Shown: piece after piece, positions 782 through 17,277 of the stretch
Layout: every line of letters begins with the position of its first letter
How positions within the stretch are numbered: the first letter of the stretch is position 1
NCBI GenBank assembly: GCA_031271075.1
Contig: JAISWN010000258.1
Span: 1 to 17,709, forward strand
Length of the DNA: 17,709 nucleotides
DNA from: Treponema sp.
Lineage (GTDB): Bacteria > Spirochaetota > Spirochaetia > Treponematales > Breznakiellaceae
Direction: 5' to 3'
Program-made: the position numbers and the translations under genes
The notes under the pieces: generated by a model
Told to the model about the DNA's origin: nothing
Databases searched by the model: none
Seen by the model: only the letters and a program-made list of their open reading frames with translations

Positions 782-2029
782 CTATTCAAAATAGTCAATA
801 TCGCCACCGCCGTCCGGGACAGTACCATTGGTATAGGTCCCGTAGCTCTTGCCTACCTCAAAGTTGGTAAAGGTAAGTTTGTCCTCCTCTATGGCGTAGG
901 TGGCAACCAGTTCTTCTTCACCCTCAGTACCAGCATAGAGCAATTCCCCGCCCAGCACGTAGAAGGCACCCGCTGTAACACCGTCCAAGGGATCCACATC
1001 CGCATCGGTAATACTCGTGGTATCAAAGCTCAGTTCCCCAGTATCATCAAACTTGAGGTTCGTAAACTTACCATTCGCGTTGCCGCTTAGAGCGTTGCCA
1101 CTGGCATTTTTGGGCGCCCATATACCATCCGTATTACTACCGCCGCCTGTTAGCTCATCCGGCACATCCCGCAGCTCAAAGGTGTTTTCCCCCAGGCTGA
1201 ACCTGTCGGCCTCAACCTCGCCGAGAGAGCCCAGCAAAACGGTATCGCCCCCGCCGATTGTACCGTAAAGGGTATCCCCCAGCCACGAGATAGTAACGGT
1301 GCTCTGACCTGCGAGATCGCCAAAGATACTGGCGGAATCGGAGAAGTCGGCCGGAGCATTGCTGTCAACTACAATGGATCCCTTTTCGTTATCACTCCCG
1401 GCAGCAATCTCTCTGCCGCTGCCGTCCGTGTAGGAGTAGGTGCCGTCGGTAAATGAGGGCAGGTCGGCGGTACGGTCTACGGCGTAGATTTTATCAGTCC
1501 CGAAGGTCTCTGTTTCAAGACCCTCCACATCGGTGAAGGTAAGGGTGCCTGCCACCCGGTCAAAAACATACTCCGCAACCGGGACCAGGGACCAATCCCC
1601 GTCATCGGGCAGGTTAACCAGCAGGGTTCCCTCGGTGGCGCTGTCCTCCTGGAAGCTGTAGACGTAAGCCTCAGTATCAGTAAACATTTCCAGGACACCG
1701 AGATCGTCTGTCCCGTCAATGGTTCCGTCGGCAAAGGTAAAATATTTGTCCGGATCAATGGCTGCCACCACGCTGATATCTACCCACTGGGTACCGGCTC
1801 CCGCCTCTACAATGGTGCTCAGGGACACGCCGTTGGGAAAGGCCGGTGTTCCCGGCGTTCCAGGTGTTCCAGGTGTTCCAGGCGTTCCCGGCGTTCCAGA
1901 TGTTCCCGGCGTTCCAGATGTTCCCGGCTCTCCATCGTTTCCCGCAGGGCCAACCGGTCCCTCGCAGGCCGTAAACACAAGGGCAATTCCCAGCAATAGA
2001 ATTGCGCCAGCGCGGATACTCTTTGACAT
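782..2029 (-). CDS. Secreted lipoprotein with collagen-like Gly-X-Y segment
   Basis: A 415-residue protein. ATG at 2029 has AGGAGG 6 bases upstream. Residues 1-21 are a signal peptide, and FTAC ending at Cys22 is a spirochaetal-type lipobox, so the mature protein should be lipid-anchored. Residues 24-62 are 13 Gly-X-Y triplets, mostly GTP, directly after the anchor. This would make a short stalk that could form a collagen-like triple helix if trimeric. The rest (about 63-415) is acidic, rich in Gly, Thr and Asp, with repeated short beta-strand-like phrases such as LTFTD and LTFTN. I recognise no catalytic domain and no Cys after the anchor. It is divergent from a XRE regulator, has a structured leader shared with the lipoprotein at 13418, and ends in an intrinsic terminator. 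Its role is unknown; a surface or envelope protein is likely. Confidence 0.85.
   Translation of the reverse strand: MSKSIRAGAILLLGIALVFTACEGPVGPAGNDGEPGTSGTPGTSGTPGTPGTPGTPGTPGTPAFPNGVSLSTIVEAGAGTQWVDISVVAAIDPDKYFTFADGTIDGTDDLGVLEMFTDTEAYVYSFQEDSATEGTLLVNLPDDGDWSLVPVAEYVFDRVAGTLTFTDVEGLETETFGTDKIYAVDRTADLPSFTDGTYSYTDGSGREIAAGSDNEKGSIVVDSNAPADFSDSASIFGDLAGQSTVTISWLGDTLYGTIGGGDTVLLGSLGEVEADRFSLGENTFELRDVPDELTGGGSNTDGIWAPKNASGNALSGNANGKFTNLKFDDTGELSFDTTSITDADVDPLDGVTAGAFYVLGGELLYAGTEGEEELVATYAIEEDKLTFTNFEVGKSYGTYTNGTVPDGGGDIDYFE
1844..1924 (-). repeat. Nine 9-bp tandem units coding Gly-Thr-Pro/Ser
   Basis: On the plus strand, variants of GGCGTTCCC, GGTGTTCCA and related 9-mers are tandemly repeated. 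They encode GTS or GTP triplets in the collagen-like stalk of the lipoprotein. Units are multiples of three, so slippage would change stalk length without shifting the frame. Confidence 0.85.
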
Positions 2030-2076
2030 AAGAGTCCTCCTATAAATTTTTTTCCGGGACTACGCCCCGGCCCGGC

Positions 2077-2212
2077 CCCGAAGAGTCGGGAAATAAAGAG
2101 GATCCGCGCATATTGAAAACCATGGCCCGGAGGCCTATGATTTATATGTATTCACGGCCCCGGCTGCGGTAAATTCCGGCAAGAACCACACCGCCGCCGG
2201 GGTTCCTCTTTT
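2077..2212 (-). promoter_or_regulatory. Structured 5' leader RNA of the first lipoprotein (copy 1 of 2)
   Basis: On the minus strand, an outer stem pairs AAAGAGGA-type sequence (2211-2204 with 2102-2095). It encloses a 13-position inner stem (2202-2190 with 2170-2158) with one mismatch and a 19-base loop (2189-2171). A further hairpin, CCCGA/TCGGG, follows at 2090-2077. Then comes AGGAGG and the start codon. The same plan occurs before the lipoprotein at 13418, with compensatory changes in the inner stem and a conserved loop. It could be a cis-regulatory RNA or a mobile inverted-repeat element. No known riboswitch class was recognised. Confidence 0.55.
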
Positions 2213-2267
2213 ATTTGAAAAACAGCCAAACCAACCCAAAACCTCTGGCCCGGGCCGGTTCCTAAGG

Positions 2268-2479: not shown

Positions 2480-2518
2480 AGGCTATTAATTGTCAAGTCC
2501 CTTATTGGCAATTAGCCT
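2480..2518 (+). promoter_or_regulatory. Interrupted inverted repeat before the XRE start, possible operator
   Basis: AGGCT and AATTG (2480-2484, 2488-2492) are mirrored by CAATT and AGCCT (2509-2518), with a 3-base bulge on the left. The site ends 7 bases before the ATG of a helix-turn-helix regulator, where an autoregulatory operator or a leader hairpin would be expected. Confidence 0.4.
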
Positions 2519-2525
2519 GGAAATA

Positions 2526-2840
2526 ATGGACTTAAAGCAGATATTTATCTTTAACCTAAGACGGTTCAGGCATGAGCGGGGAATCTCCCAGTTCCGCCTG
2601 GCCGAATTGTGCGATACAGCTACCAATTACATCGGAGAGATAGAGTTAGGCAGGCGTTTCCCGTCGCTCAGGCTGATTGAAAAGATTGGACAGGCCCTAC
2701 AGGTGGAACCCTACCGTTTTTTTATTGATGCTTCCGGCAGCGGCGCCGAGGGGCTGGAGGAAACCATCGGCTTTCTGGCCAAACTGCCGGACAAGATGAA
2801 GTTGAACGTGATAAACCGCATCAGCCTCCCCCTGGATTAG
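2526..2840 (+). CDS. XRE-family helix-turn-helix regulator (lipoprotein-associated, copy 1)
   Basis: A 104-residue protein from ATG 2526. A frame extension upstream to a TTG lacks a ribosome-binding site. Residues 6-65 are a HTH_3/Cro-CI domain: ISQFRLAELCDTATNYIGEI supplies the turn and recognition helices, followed by the family phrase RRFPSLRLIEKIGQAL and a hydrophobic cap (VEPYRFF). Residues 70-104 are a short tail, perhaps for dimerisation. It is transcribed away from the collagen-like lipoprotein across a shared control region and is a candidate regulator of it. A second XRE gene lies beside the second collagen-tagged lipoprotein. The target and any inducer cannot be read from the sequence. 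Confidence 0.8.
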   Translation: MDLKQIFIFNLRRFRHERGISQFRLAELCDTATNYIGEIELGRRFPSLRLIEKIGQALQVEPYRFFIDASGSGAEGLEETIGFLAKLPDKMKLNVINRISLPLD

Positions 2841-13067: not shown

Positions 13068-13195
13068 CTACAGAGAGTATAGTGGGGAGTATAGAGTAGG
13101 TAATGTAGAGTATATAATATGTAGTAAGGAATATAGAGTAGTGAGTACATAGTATTAAATATAGGGTACAGAGTATGGAGTATAGAGTAAGAGAC
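13068..13195. repeat. Degenerate AT-rich repeat of GTATAGAGTA-like words
   Basis: Words such as AGTATAG, GTATAGAGTA, ATATAGAGTA and GTACAGAGTA recur at irregular spacing of about 8-20 bases on the plus strand. The stretch differs sharply in composition from both flanks. Frames across it on both strands are only translated repeat (for example runs of Leu-Tyr-Ser) and I do not call them genes. Confidence 0.7.
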
Positions 13196-13264
13196 AAAGG
13201 ATAAGGAGGGTTGCCGAACAAGTCAAATGTGGTTTTAGCGGGGGCCTGAGCCCCTGATTAAAAC

Positions 13265-13394
13265 AAAAGAGGAACCCCGGAGACGGTTGGATCGTGGTGG
13301 ATTTGCCGTTTCCGGGGTAAGTCTAGGTACACAAAAAGTATAAGGCTTTTTTTGTATTTAGTCCTCTTTTGATTGGCCTTTCGTTGGGAAGGCC
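13265..13394 (+). promoter_or_regulatory. Structured 5' leader RNA of the second lipoprotein (copy 2 of 2)
   Basis: AAAAGAGGA (13265-13273) pairs perfectly with TCCTCTTTT (13362-13370). Inside, CCCCGGAGACGG (13275-13286) pairs with CCGTTTCCGGGG (13306-13317) with one G-U, and a weaker A/T stem lies at about 13331-13355. A following hairpin, GGCCTT/AAGGCC (13375-13394), precedes AAGGAGG and the start at 13418. It has the same order and sizes as the leader at 2077-2212. Promoter not clearly identified. Confidence 0.55.
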
Positions 13395-13417
13395 GAGTTT
13401 ACGTGAAGGAGGACTCT

Positions 13418-15847
13418 ATGAAGAGAAAGAGTCTGCTTTTTGGTTTACTGGCGGTACTGTCCGCCGTATTGATCTTTACCGGCTGCGTGAACCCCGCCGA
13501 CGGGTCGGACGGTGCGCCGGGGGTGGGGACGGAAGGACCGGATGGCAAGAACATCGGGTTTGTTAACACCACATCGGTTACTGCCGCGGAACTCAAGGCC
13601 CTTTTCGAGACTGCGCTTGTTGATGTTGTAACACTGGGTACCGTGGTAGAAAAGGTTGACGGCGAAATTCCTTCGGGAAAGAAGCTCATTGTGACGGGCC
13701 CCGATACGGCGGTTAAGAACGGCGAGTCCCTTGAGATCAAGGCCGACGGTACGCTTGCGATCTTCGGTGGCGCGAAGCTGAACGCCAGTTATACCAGTAC
13801 GGTGGGTTATGTGAAAGGCTCGGCGGCGGGGATTACGGGGGAAGGCGTTATCGTGCTGCCCTTTGTGGACGGCGGGACGCTTCCTGAAGGCGGCATCAGC
13901 TACACGGCGGACATAGAGGCGAAAAAGGCTGTCGGCTCGTACAACGACGGTGACAGTACTCCCGCAGGCCCGCTTGACAACGCCGGCATCGTGAAGATCT
14001 TTGGTCTGACGGAGGGCCCCGACAGCCTCACGGTGGCCGACATTACCGGCCTTACCAAGGCCGCGGTTCCGTCTGGGAAGACGCTGACGCTTACGGGCAC
14101 GGCCAACACGTTCACGGGGGCGCTTGACCTTGCATTGGGCGGGGACCTTATCGTGGACGGGACACTGGCAACCACCGGCACATTCGAGATTAAGGCAAAC
14201 GGCACAGACAGCAACATCACCATCAACGGGAAGCTGGATCTGGGCGCAACCGGTACGATTGCCGGAAAGATTACCAACAACGGCGTTATCTCATCGGCGG
14301 CGACGACAAACACCGTGCTGATGCCGCTAATCACCACCCCTGTGGGAAGCGGCAAGGTGGTGCTGTCCGGGGACGCCGGGAGTCCGCTTTCCGGCACGGC
14401 GGCGCTTACCCAGAATGTCGAGATTGCGGAGAACGGAACCCTGAAAGCGGCGGCCGTTGCCGCGCCGTTCTCCAACGACAAGACCATCACCATCGAGACG
14501 GACGGCACGCTTGATCTCGGCGAGGCGGTCGCTACTCTGTCGTTGACCGGCGTAACCATCAAAAACGACGGGGGGACCATCGCTACGACGACCACCTCGG
14601 ACAAGGCTTTGCAGGCCATTCTCAACGCGGGTGTGGGCGGCAACGTTACCTCAGATGGCGCAGTGGTGATCTCCACGGAAAACCCCTTGACCGCGTTTAC
14701 CGTTCCGGCGGGCACGGAATTTACACATAAAACCGGCGCATTTCTCGGCGGCGCAGTGCCAATCGTGATTGAGGGTGATGCAACGTTTACCACGGGGACA
14801 TTCGCAAGCCAGACGGGGAAAGTTACCGTCAACGGCACGGCAACGTTCACCGTGGGCACCTTTGAGGGCTTGGTTGGCGCGGCGAACCAAACGATTGTCG
14901 AAGTCGGCCCGAACGGGAACGCCACGTTTACGGCGGCTACCTTTAAGGCGTCGAACCAGACAGTCGGTAACATCGTGATTAACGGCACGGCATCATTCGG
15001 CGCGGCAGCGGCTCCCGGCGGCAACGTTACGGTGGGAGCATCCGGCGTGGTGAATATTGGTACCGCCGGCTCGCTCGCCGTCACGGGGACCAAGACGCTC
15101 ACGGTTGGTGGGTCCGCTAACAACGTGACGTTCACGAAGGCTACCGTCAAGGGGACGCTCACGGGCGAGACCGGGACGGTTACGATTGCGGATACCCAGA
15201 CCATCGTGCTTGTCGACACCGGTACTATCGTGGTTGCGGGGGAAGGAAAAGTCGATCTGGTTCACACCACGTTCGGCGCGGGCACCTACACGGCAGGTAA
15301 GGGCATCACCATTACCGCGGCGACAGCGGGCGACACCATCGTTACCGACAGTGTGGACAACGCCGCTACGAACAAACTTGCTGTCGGAGATCAGCTCGCA
15401 CTGGGCGAAAAGGCAGGAGCAAGCACTACCGCGGCAACGTACACCTTCAAGAAGGGTGGCGATAACAAAGTGGTGCTGAACGCGGCAGAAAACACCATCA
15501 CCATCCCCGCCGACAGTGGAAACACCGGTGCGCAGGTCGAGGTATCCGCCGCGGCGGGCATCACGCTTGGCGACGGGTCGATCCTGCTGGGCCGCGCAAC
15601 AGCAGGCGGCGCGGGCAGCCTGAAGTTTGCGTCAGGCGCGACAATCGGGACGTTTACGGAAGAGACCAATTCTAAATTAGCGACGAGCGGTAACTTTACG
15701 GACGGTGATAATGAGTCCGCGAAAGATGTACCGGTTGGTTCCGCTAATGACGATGGCGTCATCACCGCTGACACCAAGACCGTTTACGGCGCGAAAGATG
15801 GGACCGGGAACGCAACGATTGATAAAGACACGGATTTCACCGCCTAA
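13418..15847 (+). CDS. Large repetitive beta-rich lipoprotein with collagen-like tag
   Basis: An 809-residue protein. ATG 13418 is chosen because AAGGAGG precedes it and a signal peptide starts there; the open frame extends 15 codons upstream. Residues 1-22 are the signal peptide and IFTGC places the lipid anchor at Cys23. A short Gly-rich collagen-like run follows (DGSDGAPGVGTEGPDG). The rest is Gly, Thr, Ala and Val-rich repeated strand phrases, such as GDATFTTGTF, GTATFTVGTF and GNATFTAATF, as in a parallel beta-helix or adhesin-like passenger. I see no Cys after the anchor and no Trp. There is no autotransporter barrel. The lipobox region and post-anchor tag resemble the lipoprotein at 782-2029, but the bodies differ. 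It shares a structured leader with that gene and is followed by a XRE regulator. A surface-exposed structural or adhesive role is inferred. Confidence 0.82.
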   Translation: MKRKSLLFGLLAVLSAVLIFTGCVNPADGSDGAPGVGTEGPDGKNIGFVNTTSVTAAELKALFETALVDVVTLGTVVEKVDGEIPSGKKLIVTGPDTAVKNGESLEIKADGTLAIFGGAKLNASYTSTVGYVKGSAAGITGEGVIVLPFVDGGTLPEGGISYTADIEAKKAVGSYNDGDSTPAGPLDNAGIVKIFGLTEGPDSLTVADITGLTKAAVPSGKTLTLTGTANTFTGALDLALGGDLIVDGTLATTGTFEIKANGTDSNITINGKLDLGATGTIAGKITNNGVISSAATTNTVLMPLITTPVGSGKVVLSGDAGSPLSGTAALTQNVEIAENGTLKAAAVAAPFSNDKTITIETDGTLDLGEAVATLSLTGVTIKNDGGTIATTTTSDKALQAILNAGVGGNVTSDGAVVISTENPLTAFTVPAGTEFTHKTGAFLGGAVPIVIEGDATFTTGTFASQTGKVTVNGTATFTVGTFEGLVGAANQTIVEVGPNGNATFTAATFKASNQTVGNIVINGTASFGAAAAPGGNVTVGASGVVNIGTAGSLAVTGTKTLTVGGSANNVTFTKATVKGTLTGETGTVTIADTQTIVLVDTGTIVVAGEGKVDLVHTTFGAGTYTAGKGITITAATAGDTIVTDSVDNAATNKLAVGDQLALGEKAGASTTAATYTFKKGGDNKVVLNAAENTITIPADSGNTGAQVEVSAAAGITLGDGSILLGRATAGGAGSLKFASGATIGTFTEETNSKLATSGNFTDGDNESAKDVPVGSANDDGVITADTKTVYGAKDGTGNATIDKDTDFTA

Positions 15848-15953: not shown

Positions 15954-16298
15954 ATGACCGGAGAGAATGTACGCGCCGCCTTAAGCAGTAACATAAGAAA
16001 ACTGCGGAACCGCCGCGACTGGACACAGACGGAACTTGCCAAACGGGCGAATATCTCGATGAATTTCTTAAGCGAGATAGAACGCTGCCATAAGTGGCCT
16101 TACCCGGAAACCCTGCAGAACCTCGCCGCGGCCCTTGGGGTGGAAGTCTTCGAATTCTTCAAACCCGAAGACGGCGGCCCCGACATCGAAACATATATAA
16201 ACCAATTTTCAAACCACATGGCCCTGGCCGTGGAAAAGTCGGTACGGGACACGGTCTTCAGCATCGCGCAACAGTACAGCCAGGCGCCTTTACCGTAA
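15954..16298 (+). CDS. XRE-family helix-turn-helix regulator (lipoprotein-associated, copy 2)
   Basis: A 114-residue protein from ATG 15954, with only a weak GGA 9 bases upstream. Residues 10-68 are a Cro/CI-type domain: LRNRRDWTQTELAKRANISMNFLSEIERC, then WPYPETLQNLAAALGVEVFEFF. Residues 70-114 form a short C-terminal tail (IETYINQFSNHMALAVEKSV) that may mediate dimerisation. It follows the large lipoprotein on the same strand, separated by a hairpin that may reduce read-through. By analogy with the first module it may regulate that lipoprotein. It is only modestly similar to the XRE protein at 2526, so recent duplication is not obvious. Confidence 0.82.
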   Translation: MTGENVRAALSSNIRKLRNRRDWTQTELAKRANISMNFLSEIERCHKWPYPETLQNLAAALGVEVFEFFKPEDGGPDIETYINQFSNHMALAVEKSVRDTVFSIAQQYSQAPLP

Positions 16299-16405: not shown

Positions 16406-16428
16406 AAACCTCATGAGAAGTGACGGCC

Positions 16429-17277
16429 ATGAATCCGGTATTGAAGTATAGGGGAGGGAAGTCAAGAGAAATCCCAAAATTCTTAAGCTATATTCCGAGC
16501 GACTATGAGCGGTATGTGGAGCCGTTCTTGGGCGGGGGAGCTGTATTTTTTTACCTGGAACCGGAAAATGCTATTTTAAATGATGTTAATGCCCGCCTTA
16601 TAACTTTTTATAAACAACTGCGGGACGAATATCCGGTAATGAGGAAGCAGTTAAATGCGTTGCAAAACAAATATGAAAAAAATCAAATCGCTTTTAAAAA
16701 GCTAAAATTAGAAAAGCCTGACGATACTGTTCCAAACGCCAATGAGGGTTTATATTATAAAATGCGTGATAAATATAATAAACCTGATGGCACATATCCG
16801 GAAGGGGTTGTCTATTTTTTTATCAATAAGACAGCTTATTCCGGCATGATACGGTATAATAGTAATGGTGAGTATAATGTTCCTTTTGGCAGGTATCCTA
16901 ATTTTAATACACAGCTTTTGACAGAACAACATAGCATGCTTTTGAAAAATGCGGAATTATATAATTTAGATTATGCAAGAATATTTGAAATGGCCGCGGA
17001 AAATGATTTTGTTTTCTTGGATCCTCCTTATGATTGTGTTTTTAACGATTATGGGAATATTGATATGATGAACGGCTTTGATGAAGAACAACATAAACGC
17101 TTAGCCGACGATTTCAAGAAATTGCAATGCCGTGCGTTAATGATTATAGGAAAAACACCGCTTACAGAAAAACTCTATAAAAATTATATTGTTGATGAAT
17201 ACTATAAAAATTATGCGGTGAACATAAAGAATAGATTCAATAATGACAGAATGCACATAATTGTCAAAAACCACTAA
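16429..17277 (+). CDS. D12-class DNA adenine N6-methyltransferase
   Basis: A 282-residue protein. ATG 16429 has GAGAAG 8 bases upstream; a GTG three codons earlier is the alternative. It transfers a methyl group from S-adenosylmethionine to adenine N6 in DNA. KYRGGKS (6-12) and EPFLGGGAVFF (31-41) form the AdoMet-binding motif I region, and DPPY (198-201) is the catalytic motif IV, an order typical of the Dam/D12 alpha class. FINKTAYSGMIRYNSNGEYNVPFG matches the conserved central region. The size suits an orphan or phage-type methylase. No restriction enzyme is visible, though the window ends soon after. The gene is clearly AT-rich against its GC-rich neighbours, suggesting transfer. The target sequence cannot be inferred with confidence. 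Confidence 0.92.
   Translation: MNPVLKYRGGKSREIPKFLSYIPSDYERYVEPFLGGGAVFFYLEPENAILNDVNARLITFYKQLRDEYPVMRKQLNALQNKYEKNQIAFKKLKLEKPDDTVPNANEGLYYKMRDKYNKPDGTYPEGVVYFFINKTAYSGMIRYNSNGEYNVPFGRYPNFNTQLLTEQHSMLLKNAELYNLDYARIFEMAAENDFVFLDPPYDCVFNDYGNIDMMNGFDEEQHKRLADDFKKLQCRALMIIGKTPLTEKLYKNYIVDEYYKNYAVNIKNRFNNDRMHIIVKNH

What the first reader, a model, noticed from the sequence alone, without database searches (positions are those of the whole stretch)
13265..13394. Leader RNA with covariation, shared by two lipoprotein genes 11 kb apart
Both collagen-tagged lipoproteins have the same leader plan: an outer A(A)AAGAGGA/TCCTCTTT stem, an inner stem opening with CCCCGG, a loop, a following hairpin and an AGGAGGACTCT-type ribosome-binding site. 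In the 13-position inner stem, two pairs differ with pairing kept (C-G to A-T at pair 7, G-C to A-T at pair 9). The loops align as TGG-TC-TG--GGA-TTT, about 13 of 17 positions the same. Retained pairing plus a conserved loop fits an RNA element with a ligand or protein partner. I know of no riboswitch class with this layout. The other copy is at 2077-2212.
Basis: partly seen in the sequence, partly recalled or inferred. Interest (0 to 1): 0.75.

Follow-up and report, generated by a model that had tools for sequence, protein, structure and literature searches.

The report
Switch-like leader RNA of spirochete lipoproteins

Summary
Both leaders share a three-way-junction RNA (P1, P2, P3). There are six copies in the own genome and matches at E<=0.01 in 54 of 195 family genomes, up to 17 per genome; none was listed outside the family in draws of 390 and 392 genomes. 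Covariation is strong: 34 of 36 pairs with double changes. Rfam: no match. Of 141 copies, 134 have a downstream ORF, 102 lipoprotein-like, against 12 of 161 background ORFs. The P1 3' strand, GUCCUCUUU, is an anti-SD: the SD reads GGAGG(A/G)C in 93 of 113 element genes against 9 of 98 others, and in folding P1 and SD compete for it; but the two do not covary. Best explanation: a cis-acting translational switch; trigger unknown. No transcript, ligand or switching was tested.

The parts
13264..13273 (+). P1 5' strand (CAAAAGAGGA), an SD look-alike
13274..13286 (+). P2 5' strand (ACCCCGGAGACGG)
13287..13305 (+). L2, the loop capping P2, orientation B (ATCGTGGTGGAT)
13306..13318 (+). P2 3' strand (CCGTTTCCGGGGT)
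13323..13361 (+). P3 hairpin with the conserved AGUAUA motif (13337-13342)
13362..13371 (+). P1 3' strand (TCCTCTTTTG); 13360-13366 AGTCCTC is the anti-SD
13375..13394 (+). P4, variable hairpin between element and SD (no room for it in copies with a 12-19 nt spacer)
13406..13414 (+). extended Shine-Dalgarno AAGGAGGAC, complementary to the P1 3' strand
13418..15847 (+). lipoprotein gene (lipobox FTGC)
13231..13264 (+). conserved upstream palindrome GGTTTTAGC-GGGGGC..GCCCCTG-ATTAAAAC, possible promoter region
   Evidence: no consensus promoter on this strand
2094..2213 (-). second copy of the element: P1 2213-2204/2102-2094, P2 2202-2191/2169-2158, L2 2190-2170 (orientation B)
2034..2041 (-). 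Shine-Dalgarno AGGAGGAC of the second copy
782..2029 (-). lipoprotein gene with collagen-type GXY repeats

Best explanation
The element is the first part of the mRNA leader of a large set of surface-lipoprotein genes in one family of uncultured treponemes. It folds into a three-way junction. The 3' strand of its closing stem P1 (GUCCUCUUU) can pair either with the P1 5' strand (AAAGAGGA), leaving the SD free (ON), or with the SD (GGAGGAC), hiding it (OFF). Something that stabilises or opens the junction sets how much of each lipoprotein is translated, so one signal can tune many surface proteins. Shown by sequence: the structure, its selection as RNA, the lipoprotein link and the conserved complementarity. 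Inferred: that it is transcribed from P1, that switching happens, that P1 formed is the ON state, and that there is a trigger (small molecule, protein or RNA; unknown).
For: On a MAFFT alignment of BLAST-found sequences 19 of 37 pairs have double changes and 0 of 500 shuffles reach the covariation score; on 106 model-aligned sequences 34 of 36. G-U intermediates are common (P1 pair 7-211: 94 A-U, 12 G-U), as RNA pairing expects. Downstream ORF lipoprotein-like in 102 of 134 against 12 of 161; 123 downstream proteins fall into 53 BLASTP clusters, so the leader is kept although the proteins differ. SD followed by AC or GC in 93 of 113 element genes against 9 of 98. P1 3' strand 0.95-1.00 conserved at six positions, its P1 partners 0.86-0.98. 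In 123 leaders SD:P1' pairing has mean probability 0.48 with P1 present, 0.75 without the P1 5' strand, 0.07 with P1' complemented. Without the P1 5' strand both window leaders refold to an SD:P1' helix.
Against: No covariation between P1' and SD (108 leaders; Fisher p = 1.0), so the switch rests on conserved complementarity, which shared descent of the leader could also give. In plain folding P1 exceeds probability 0.5 in only 41 of 123 leaders and the SD is mostly free in only 24 of 123, so many leaders would be OFF unless something stabilises P1, while the window's two favour P1. The lipoprotein and SD classes come from my own rules; background ORFs were not checked to be genes. No transcript data. 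No trigger found.
Confidence: 0.6

Rival explanations
1. A true riboswitch: the three-way junction is an aptamer for a small molecule (for instance a second messenger), with the P1/SD platform as output. A special case of the best explanation.
For: Three-way junction with a hidden SD in the OFF state, as in the add adenine riboswitch (PMC8191784, passages). Many copies per genome before envelope genes, as for c-di-GMP riboswitches in C. difficile (PMC6200980, passages). Conserved AGUAUA motif in P3.
Against: Junction positions are weakly conserved (J1/2 A 0.63; J2/3 at most 0.59), unlike most aptamers (recalled). L2 flips orientation. Ten sampled targets share no pathway. No Rfam match.
Confidence: 0.3
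2. A passive leader: a 5'-terminal structure that stabilises the mRNA or insulates the SD, with no signal and no switching.
For: A TATA-like sequence lies within 16 bases upstream of the P1 GAGG in 89 of 141 copies against 28 of 282 control windows (P1's own A-run inflates this), so the RNA may begin with P1, like known 5'-end protecting stems (recalled). The window copies fold mainly with P1 formed.
Against: The SD extension matching P1' (93 of 113 against 9 of 98) and the competition of the two states are not needed for a stabiliser.
Confidence: 0.2
3. The element pairs in trans: L2 loops of type A (CGCCAA) and type B (UUGGCG) are reverse complements, so leaders of different lipoprotein mRNAs could kiss each other and be co-regulated.
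For: 59 A and 49 B loops of 141, both in one genome (G025 6 and 6, G023 4 and 7, G007 4 and 3). No clear cis partner for the loop. In ten genomes the 12-mer has about 24 sites outside elements; the 17 examined all lie in stop-free frames of 160 codons or more.
Against: The window's own genome has six B and no A, and G002 five A and no B, though both are incomplete. Hairpin-templated inversion explains the two orientations without function.
Confidence: 0.07
4. A DNA element: operator, recombination site or mobile inverted repeat.
For: Long inverted repeats; P2 loop inversion between relatives; a palindrome upstream of P1.
Against: G-U intermediates and covariation in copies from 17 genera; same-strand gene close behind (median 63.5, range 12-172 for the 86 strict lipoprotein calls); no match of a 21-base core in viral contigs.
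Confidence: 0.05
5. An RNA thermometer, melting to free the SD, as upstream of ligA/ligB in Leptospira.
For: A precedent for lipoprotein leaders in spirochetes (PMC4166951, passages).
Against: A thermometer needs only a weak SD-masking hairpin (recalled); here a covarying three-way junction with a 12-pair P2 is kept.
Confidence: 0.05

Closest known systems
add adenine riboswitch (purine riboswitch, translational)
   Same: Three-way junction of P1, P2 and P3; a stem-loop hides the SD in the OFF state and refolding frees it (PMC8191784, passages). That the P1 strand itself competes is recalled.
   Different: No Rfam match for the window or 20 loci with copies; other loops and junction, other target genes, ligand unknown.
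c-di-GMP-I/II riboswitches of C. difficile
   Same: Many copies in one genome (16 predicted) before several surface and envelope genes (PMC6200980, passages).
   Different: No Rfam match. The output here looks translational; that theirs acts mainly on transcription is from the passages and recall.
Leptospira ligA/ligB leader (RNA thermometer)
   Same: Structured leaders of two spirochete genes for putative lipoproteins (PMC4166951, passages).
   Different: Different taxon; the passages seen give no three-way junction; temperature not tested here.
Termite-flg and Termite-leu RNAs (Weinberg 2010)
   Same: Structured RNAs listed as termite hindgut only (PMC2864571, passages).
   Different: Both carry Rfam accessions and neither matched.
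Flip-flop small inversions in chloroplast hairpins
   Same: Stretches of 5-50 bp between short inverted repeats flip orientation (PMC12928735, passages).
   Different: Here the flipping loop caps a conserved bacterial RNA stem and its sequence stays conserved in both orientations.

Membership tests
Cis-regulatory structured leader RNA | Conserved secondary structure with compensatory changes | tested here: met
Cis-regulatory structured leader RNA | Close before functionally related genes on the same strand | tested here: met
   134 of 141 with a same-strand ORF within 320 nt, 102 lipoprotein-like, background 12 of 161; distance 12-172 nt for the 86 strict calls
Cis-regulatory structured leader RNA | Transcribed as part of the mRNA | not testable with these tools
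   no RNA data
Translational switch | Two competing pairings, one hiding the SD | tested here: met
   in silico only
Translational switch | Covariation between anti-SD and SD | tested here: not met
Riboswitch | Binds a small ligand and changes expression | not testable with these tools
   needs probing and reporters
Any Rfam 15 family, including purine and c-di-GMP riboswitches | Covariance-model score at or above gathering | tested here: not met
   0 in the window, 0 in 20 loci with copies; the 7 weak hits at E up to 10 in 13200-13440 are far below gathering
RNA thermometer | Temperature-dependent SD opening | not tested
   no temperature series was folded or measured
Mobile inverted repeat (MITE-like) | Insertion independent of downstream genes | tested here: not met
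Mobile inverted repeat (MITE-like) | Target-site duplications at the ends | not tested
   flanks were not compared for this

The most novel reading that the evidence does not exclude
An orientation-free, invertible loop inside a conserved regulatory RNA: the P2 loop flips by inversion between the P2 arms, and both forms are kept because they act as a complementary pair, so that lipoprotein mRNAs with A loops and with B loops recognise each other (or a common partner) and coordinate the surface coat.
Probability: 0.08. Interest if true: 0.93.

Novelty: new variant of a known kind. Interest (0 to 1): 0.77.

Why it matters
It would be a new structured RNA class that places many unrelated surface lipoproteins of uncultured treponemes under one post-transcriptional switch, giving a handle on how these bacteria remodel their surface. 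The loop that stays conserved while flipping orientation is a puzzle in its own right, either as a mutational process at RNA-coding hairpins or as a pairing code between mRNAs. A covariance model from these alignments would let others annotate it.

Tried and rejected
Rfam at gathering score for the window and for 20 loci with copies, and at E up to 10 for 13200-13440: nothing near a gathering score. Covariation between P1' and SD: none. A cis partner for L2: of 101 columns outside the loop (79 rows) two passed 0-3 of 300 within-genus permutations, column 69, which is in P2, and column 181, in P3; about one is expected by chance; complementarity of L2 to the rest of the leader was the same for the real and the inverted loop (5.56 and 5.50; 106 copies). 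A trans site for the 12-mer TTCTTGGCGGAA in ten genomes: 45 matches, 24 outside elements by my comparison with the listed hits, against 17 matches of the backwards control pattern; I examined 17 of those 24, and all 17 lie in stop-free frames of 160 codons or more. Fast phase variation of L2: no clear flip among 20 pairs at 90% identity or more outside the loop (18 same, 2 unclear); 2 of 35 at 85-90% (19 unclear) and 10 of 105 at 80-85% (64 unclear); at least 18 changes on a tree of 79 rows built from short sequence, with no shuffled control printed. XRE-type HTH genes as the general partner: tblastn of four such proteins on 34 element loci matched 3, two of them one contig, all in the window's genus; the loci I set aside as controls turned out to hold element copies too, so there is no true control, and flanks were short. 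Intrinsic terminator within 13150-13430: none; one terminator-like site lies upstream of the second copy on its strand, 2261-2228. Consensus sigma-70 promoter on the coding strand: none for either window copy; one promoter-like match per region lies on the opposite strand, 13226-13198 and 2113-2141. Literature: no paper describing this RNA appeared in nine answered searches, of which four aimed at treponemal or spirochete RNAs. Two later surveys, passages only: no mention of Treponema in PMC11109978, and in PMC8040213 Treponema motifs only before ribosomal-protein genes L7/L12 and L20. The 2017 survey of 224 motifs is not held, so a description there cannot be excluded beyond its Rfam entries.

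Full report
Observation. Each folds into a three-way junction: P1 (AAAAGAGGA/UCCUCUUUU), P2 (CCCCGG...), and P3 abutting the P1 3' strand, followed by a hairpin P4 and an AGGAGGACUCU SD. Folding energies beat all 200 dinucleotide shuffles in both (z -8.4; z -4.8). The two compensatory changes in P2 are real; one further P2 pair is lost in the 2.1 kb copy.

More copies. BLASTN in the window's own genome (2.53 Mb in 394 contigs, 63% complete) finds three more near-identical copies (92, 90 and 87% identity); model R2 finds six sense copies, plus six weak antisense echoes. BLASTN with the leader matches 26 of 195 family genomes at E 0.01 or better, several of these by short pieces only.

Structure is under selection. 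I read 18 of those loci, left out L080, which lacks the junction, and aligned 17 with the 5 own copies by MAFFT. The hand-drawn junction pairs in 85.2% of cells against 38.8-55.0% with the 3' partner slid by 1 to 3 columns; 19 of 37 pairs have double changes; covariation score 0.286 against 0.170 in shuffles, 0 of 500 as high. Model R1 matches 54 of 195 family genomes at E 0.01 or better; the matches column sums to 198, weak and antisense rows included. I fetched 100 stretches beside loci already held and rescored them: 156 rows dropped as antisense, partial or duplicate, leaving 141 from 42 genomes of 17 genera. In 106 of these, aligned to the model, 34 of 36 pairs have double changes and 86.3% of cells pair against 43.1-54.9% slid; this alignment leans towards the structure. 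The strongest mutual-information pairs are structure pairs.

Range. R2 gives 8 to 17 matches in each of ten genomes chosen for many copies, weak ones included. It matches 51 of 390 genomes drawn from the order and 7 of 392 drawn from the phylum; every matching genome listed is in the window's family. These large searches use stricter filters and score few candidates per genome, so weak relatives could be missed. A 21-base core found, among named genomes, 12 stretches, all in MAGs titled Treponema sp. or Spirochaetaceae bacterium, and nothing in viral contigs. That these MAGs come from termite guts is recalled, not from a call. Rfam has no match at gathering score in the window or in 20 loci with copies.

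Target genes. Of the 141 copies, 134 have a downstream ORF; by a lipobox rule of my own 102 look like lipoproteins, 12 have only a signal-peptide-like start, 20 neither; 7 have no ORF, 6 of these within 110 bases of the locus end. Background: 12 of 161 SD-preceded ORFs of 100 aa or more in the loci then held; these were not checked to be real genes, which may lower the background. Many of the 20 look like decayed genes whose start is kept; that is my reading of the translations. The 123 downstream proteins over 60 aa fall into 53 BLASTP clusters beyond residue 25, so the shared leader is not one gene family. Ten sampled proteins include fibronectin type III, VWA, MACPF and List_Bact repeat domains, one sugar-binding protein, and four with no Pfam match.

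Output device. The P1 3' strand reads (A)GUCCUCUUU and is more conserved (0.95-1.00 at six positions) than its P1 partners (0.86-0.98). It is the complement of the SD of these genes. GGAGG is followed by AC or GC in 93 of 113 element genes and in 9 of 98 background genes (AC alone 76 of 113 against 3 of 98), an extension that 16S rRNA does not ask for (recalled). The longest Watson-Crick run between P1' and the SD averages 5.4 against 3.4 for other windows of the same element (127 leaders). In 123 leaders folded with the SD included, P1 forms at mean probability 0.32 (over 0.5 in 41) and SD:P1' at 0.48; the SD is mostly free in only 24. Without the P1 5' strand SD:P1' rises to 0.75 (over 0.5 in 104 of 123), and with P1' complemented it falls to 0.07. 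The window copies favour P1 (0.97 and 0.84), and both refold to an SD:P1' helix when the P1 5' strand is missing. Against the switch, P1' and SD do not covary (108 leaders, Fisher p = 1.0).

Promoter. A TATA-like sequence lies within 16 bases upstream of the P1 GAGG in 89 of 141 copies, against 28 of 282 windows farther upstream; P1's own A-run inflates this. At least 20 copies have only 12 to 19 nt between element end and start codon, too little for a promoter in between. Four own copies and several copies of other genera carry the palindrome GGTTTTAACAGGGGC-N-GCCCCTGATTAAAAT upstream. A consensus scan finds no promoter on the coding strand of either window copy.

The flipping loop. The loop capping P2 carries a conserved 13-mer in two forms that are reverse complements: A, TTCCGCCAAGAAT, 59 of 141, and B, ATTCTTGGCGGAA, 49 of 141; 33 unassigned, among them most g18 copies. 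Shuffled loops give 7.3 and 5.8. Both occur in single genomes (G025 6 A and 6 B; G023 4 and 7; G007 4 and 3), while the window's genome has six B and G002 five A. Among element pairs at least 72% identical outside the loop, 531 pairs of equal class (unassigned included) have mean loop identity 0.68 forward and 0.51 reversed; 339 A-B pairs have 0.52 forward and 0.65 reversed. L155 and L161 of genome G023 are 87% identical outside the loop, and in the loop 0.54 forward and 0.86 reversed; the two closest A-B pairs show no clear reversal. So in clear cases the whole loop is inverted, as small stretches are in chloroplast hairpins (PMC12928735, passages). No clear flip was seen among 20 pairs at 90% or more, which speaks against rapid phase variation. 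The loop has no clear partner in cis, and the 17 of 24 non-element sites of the 12-mer that I examined all lie in long stop-free frames. Why the sequence is kept in both orientations is unexplained; pairing between A and B leaders, a double-stranded DNA site, or a structural role of the UUC/GAA-closed loop remain open.

Verdict. A new family of structured leader RNA, very probably real (my estimate 0.97), most likely a translational switch (0.6), with an unknown trigger. It works like the add adenine riboswitch platform (PMC8191784, passages) but matches neither that nor any other Rfam family. Papers were seen as search listings and passages only; no whole text was read.

Noticed in passing
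window 2490-2840 and 15954-16298; L050 1575-2412; L087 967-1278: XRE-type HTH genes lie near element-led lipoprotein genes in the window's genus; those at window 2490, L050 and L087 are divergent from the element. Only 3 of 34 element loci matched by tblastn, all in that genus.
   Followed up: partly
L2 of 141 element copies: The P2 loop is conserved in two reverse-complement orientations, both within single genomes.
   Followed up: yes
L080 around 1501-1546: The upstream palindrome GGTTTTAAC..GATTAAAAT stands before a lipoprotein-like start without the three-way junction.
   Followed up: no
L154, L169, L192, L196, L162, L175, L197: Elements in front of lipoprotein-like starts that run into frameshifted or truncated frames, as if the genes decay while the leader is kept.
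   Followed up: no
window 13081-13189: AT-rich direct repeats of AGTATAGAGTA type upstream of the element's palindrome.
   Followed up: no
upstream of copies in genera g10, g14 and g18: Several lineages have their own GC-rich hairpin a few bases upstream of P1 (for example GCCCGTATGGGC in g10).
   Followed up: no
window 2228-2261: A terminator-like hairpin with a T-rich tail just upstream of the second element copy, on its strand.
   Followed up: no
window 16420-17277: D12-class adenine DNA methyltransferase next to an HTH gene downstream of the second lipoprotein.
   Followed up: no
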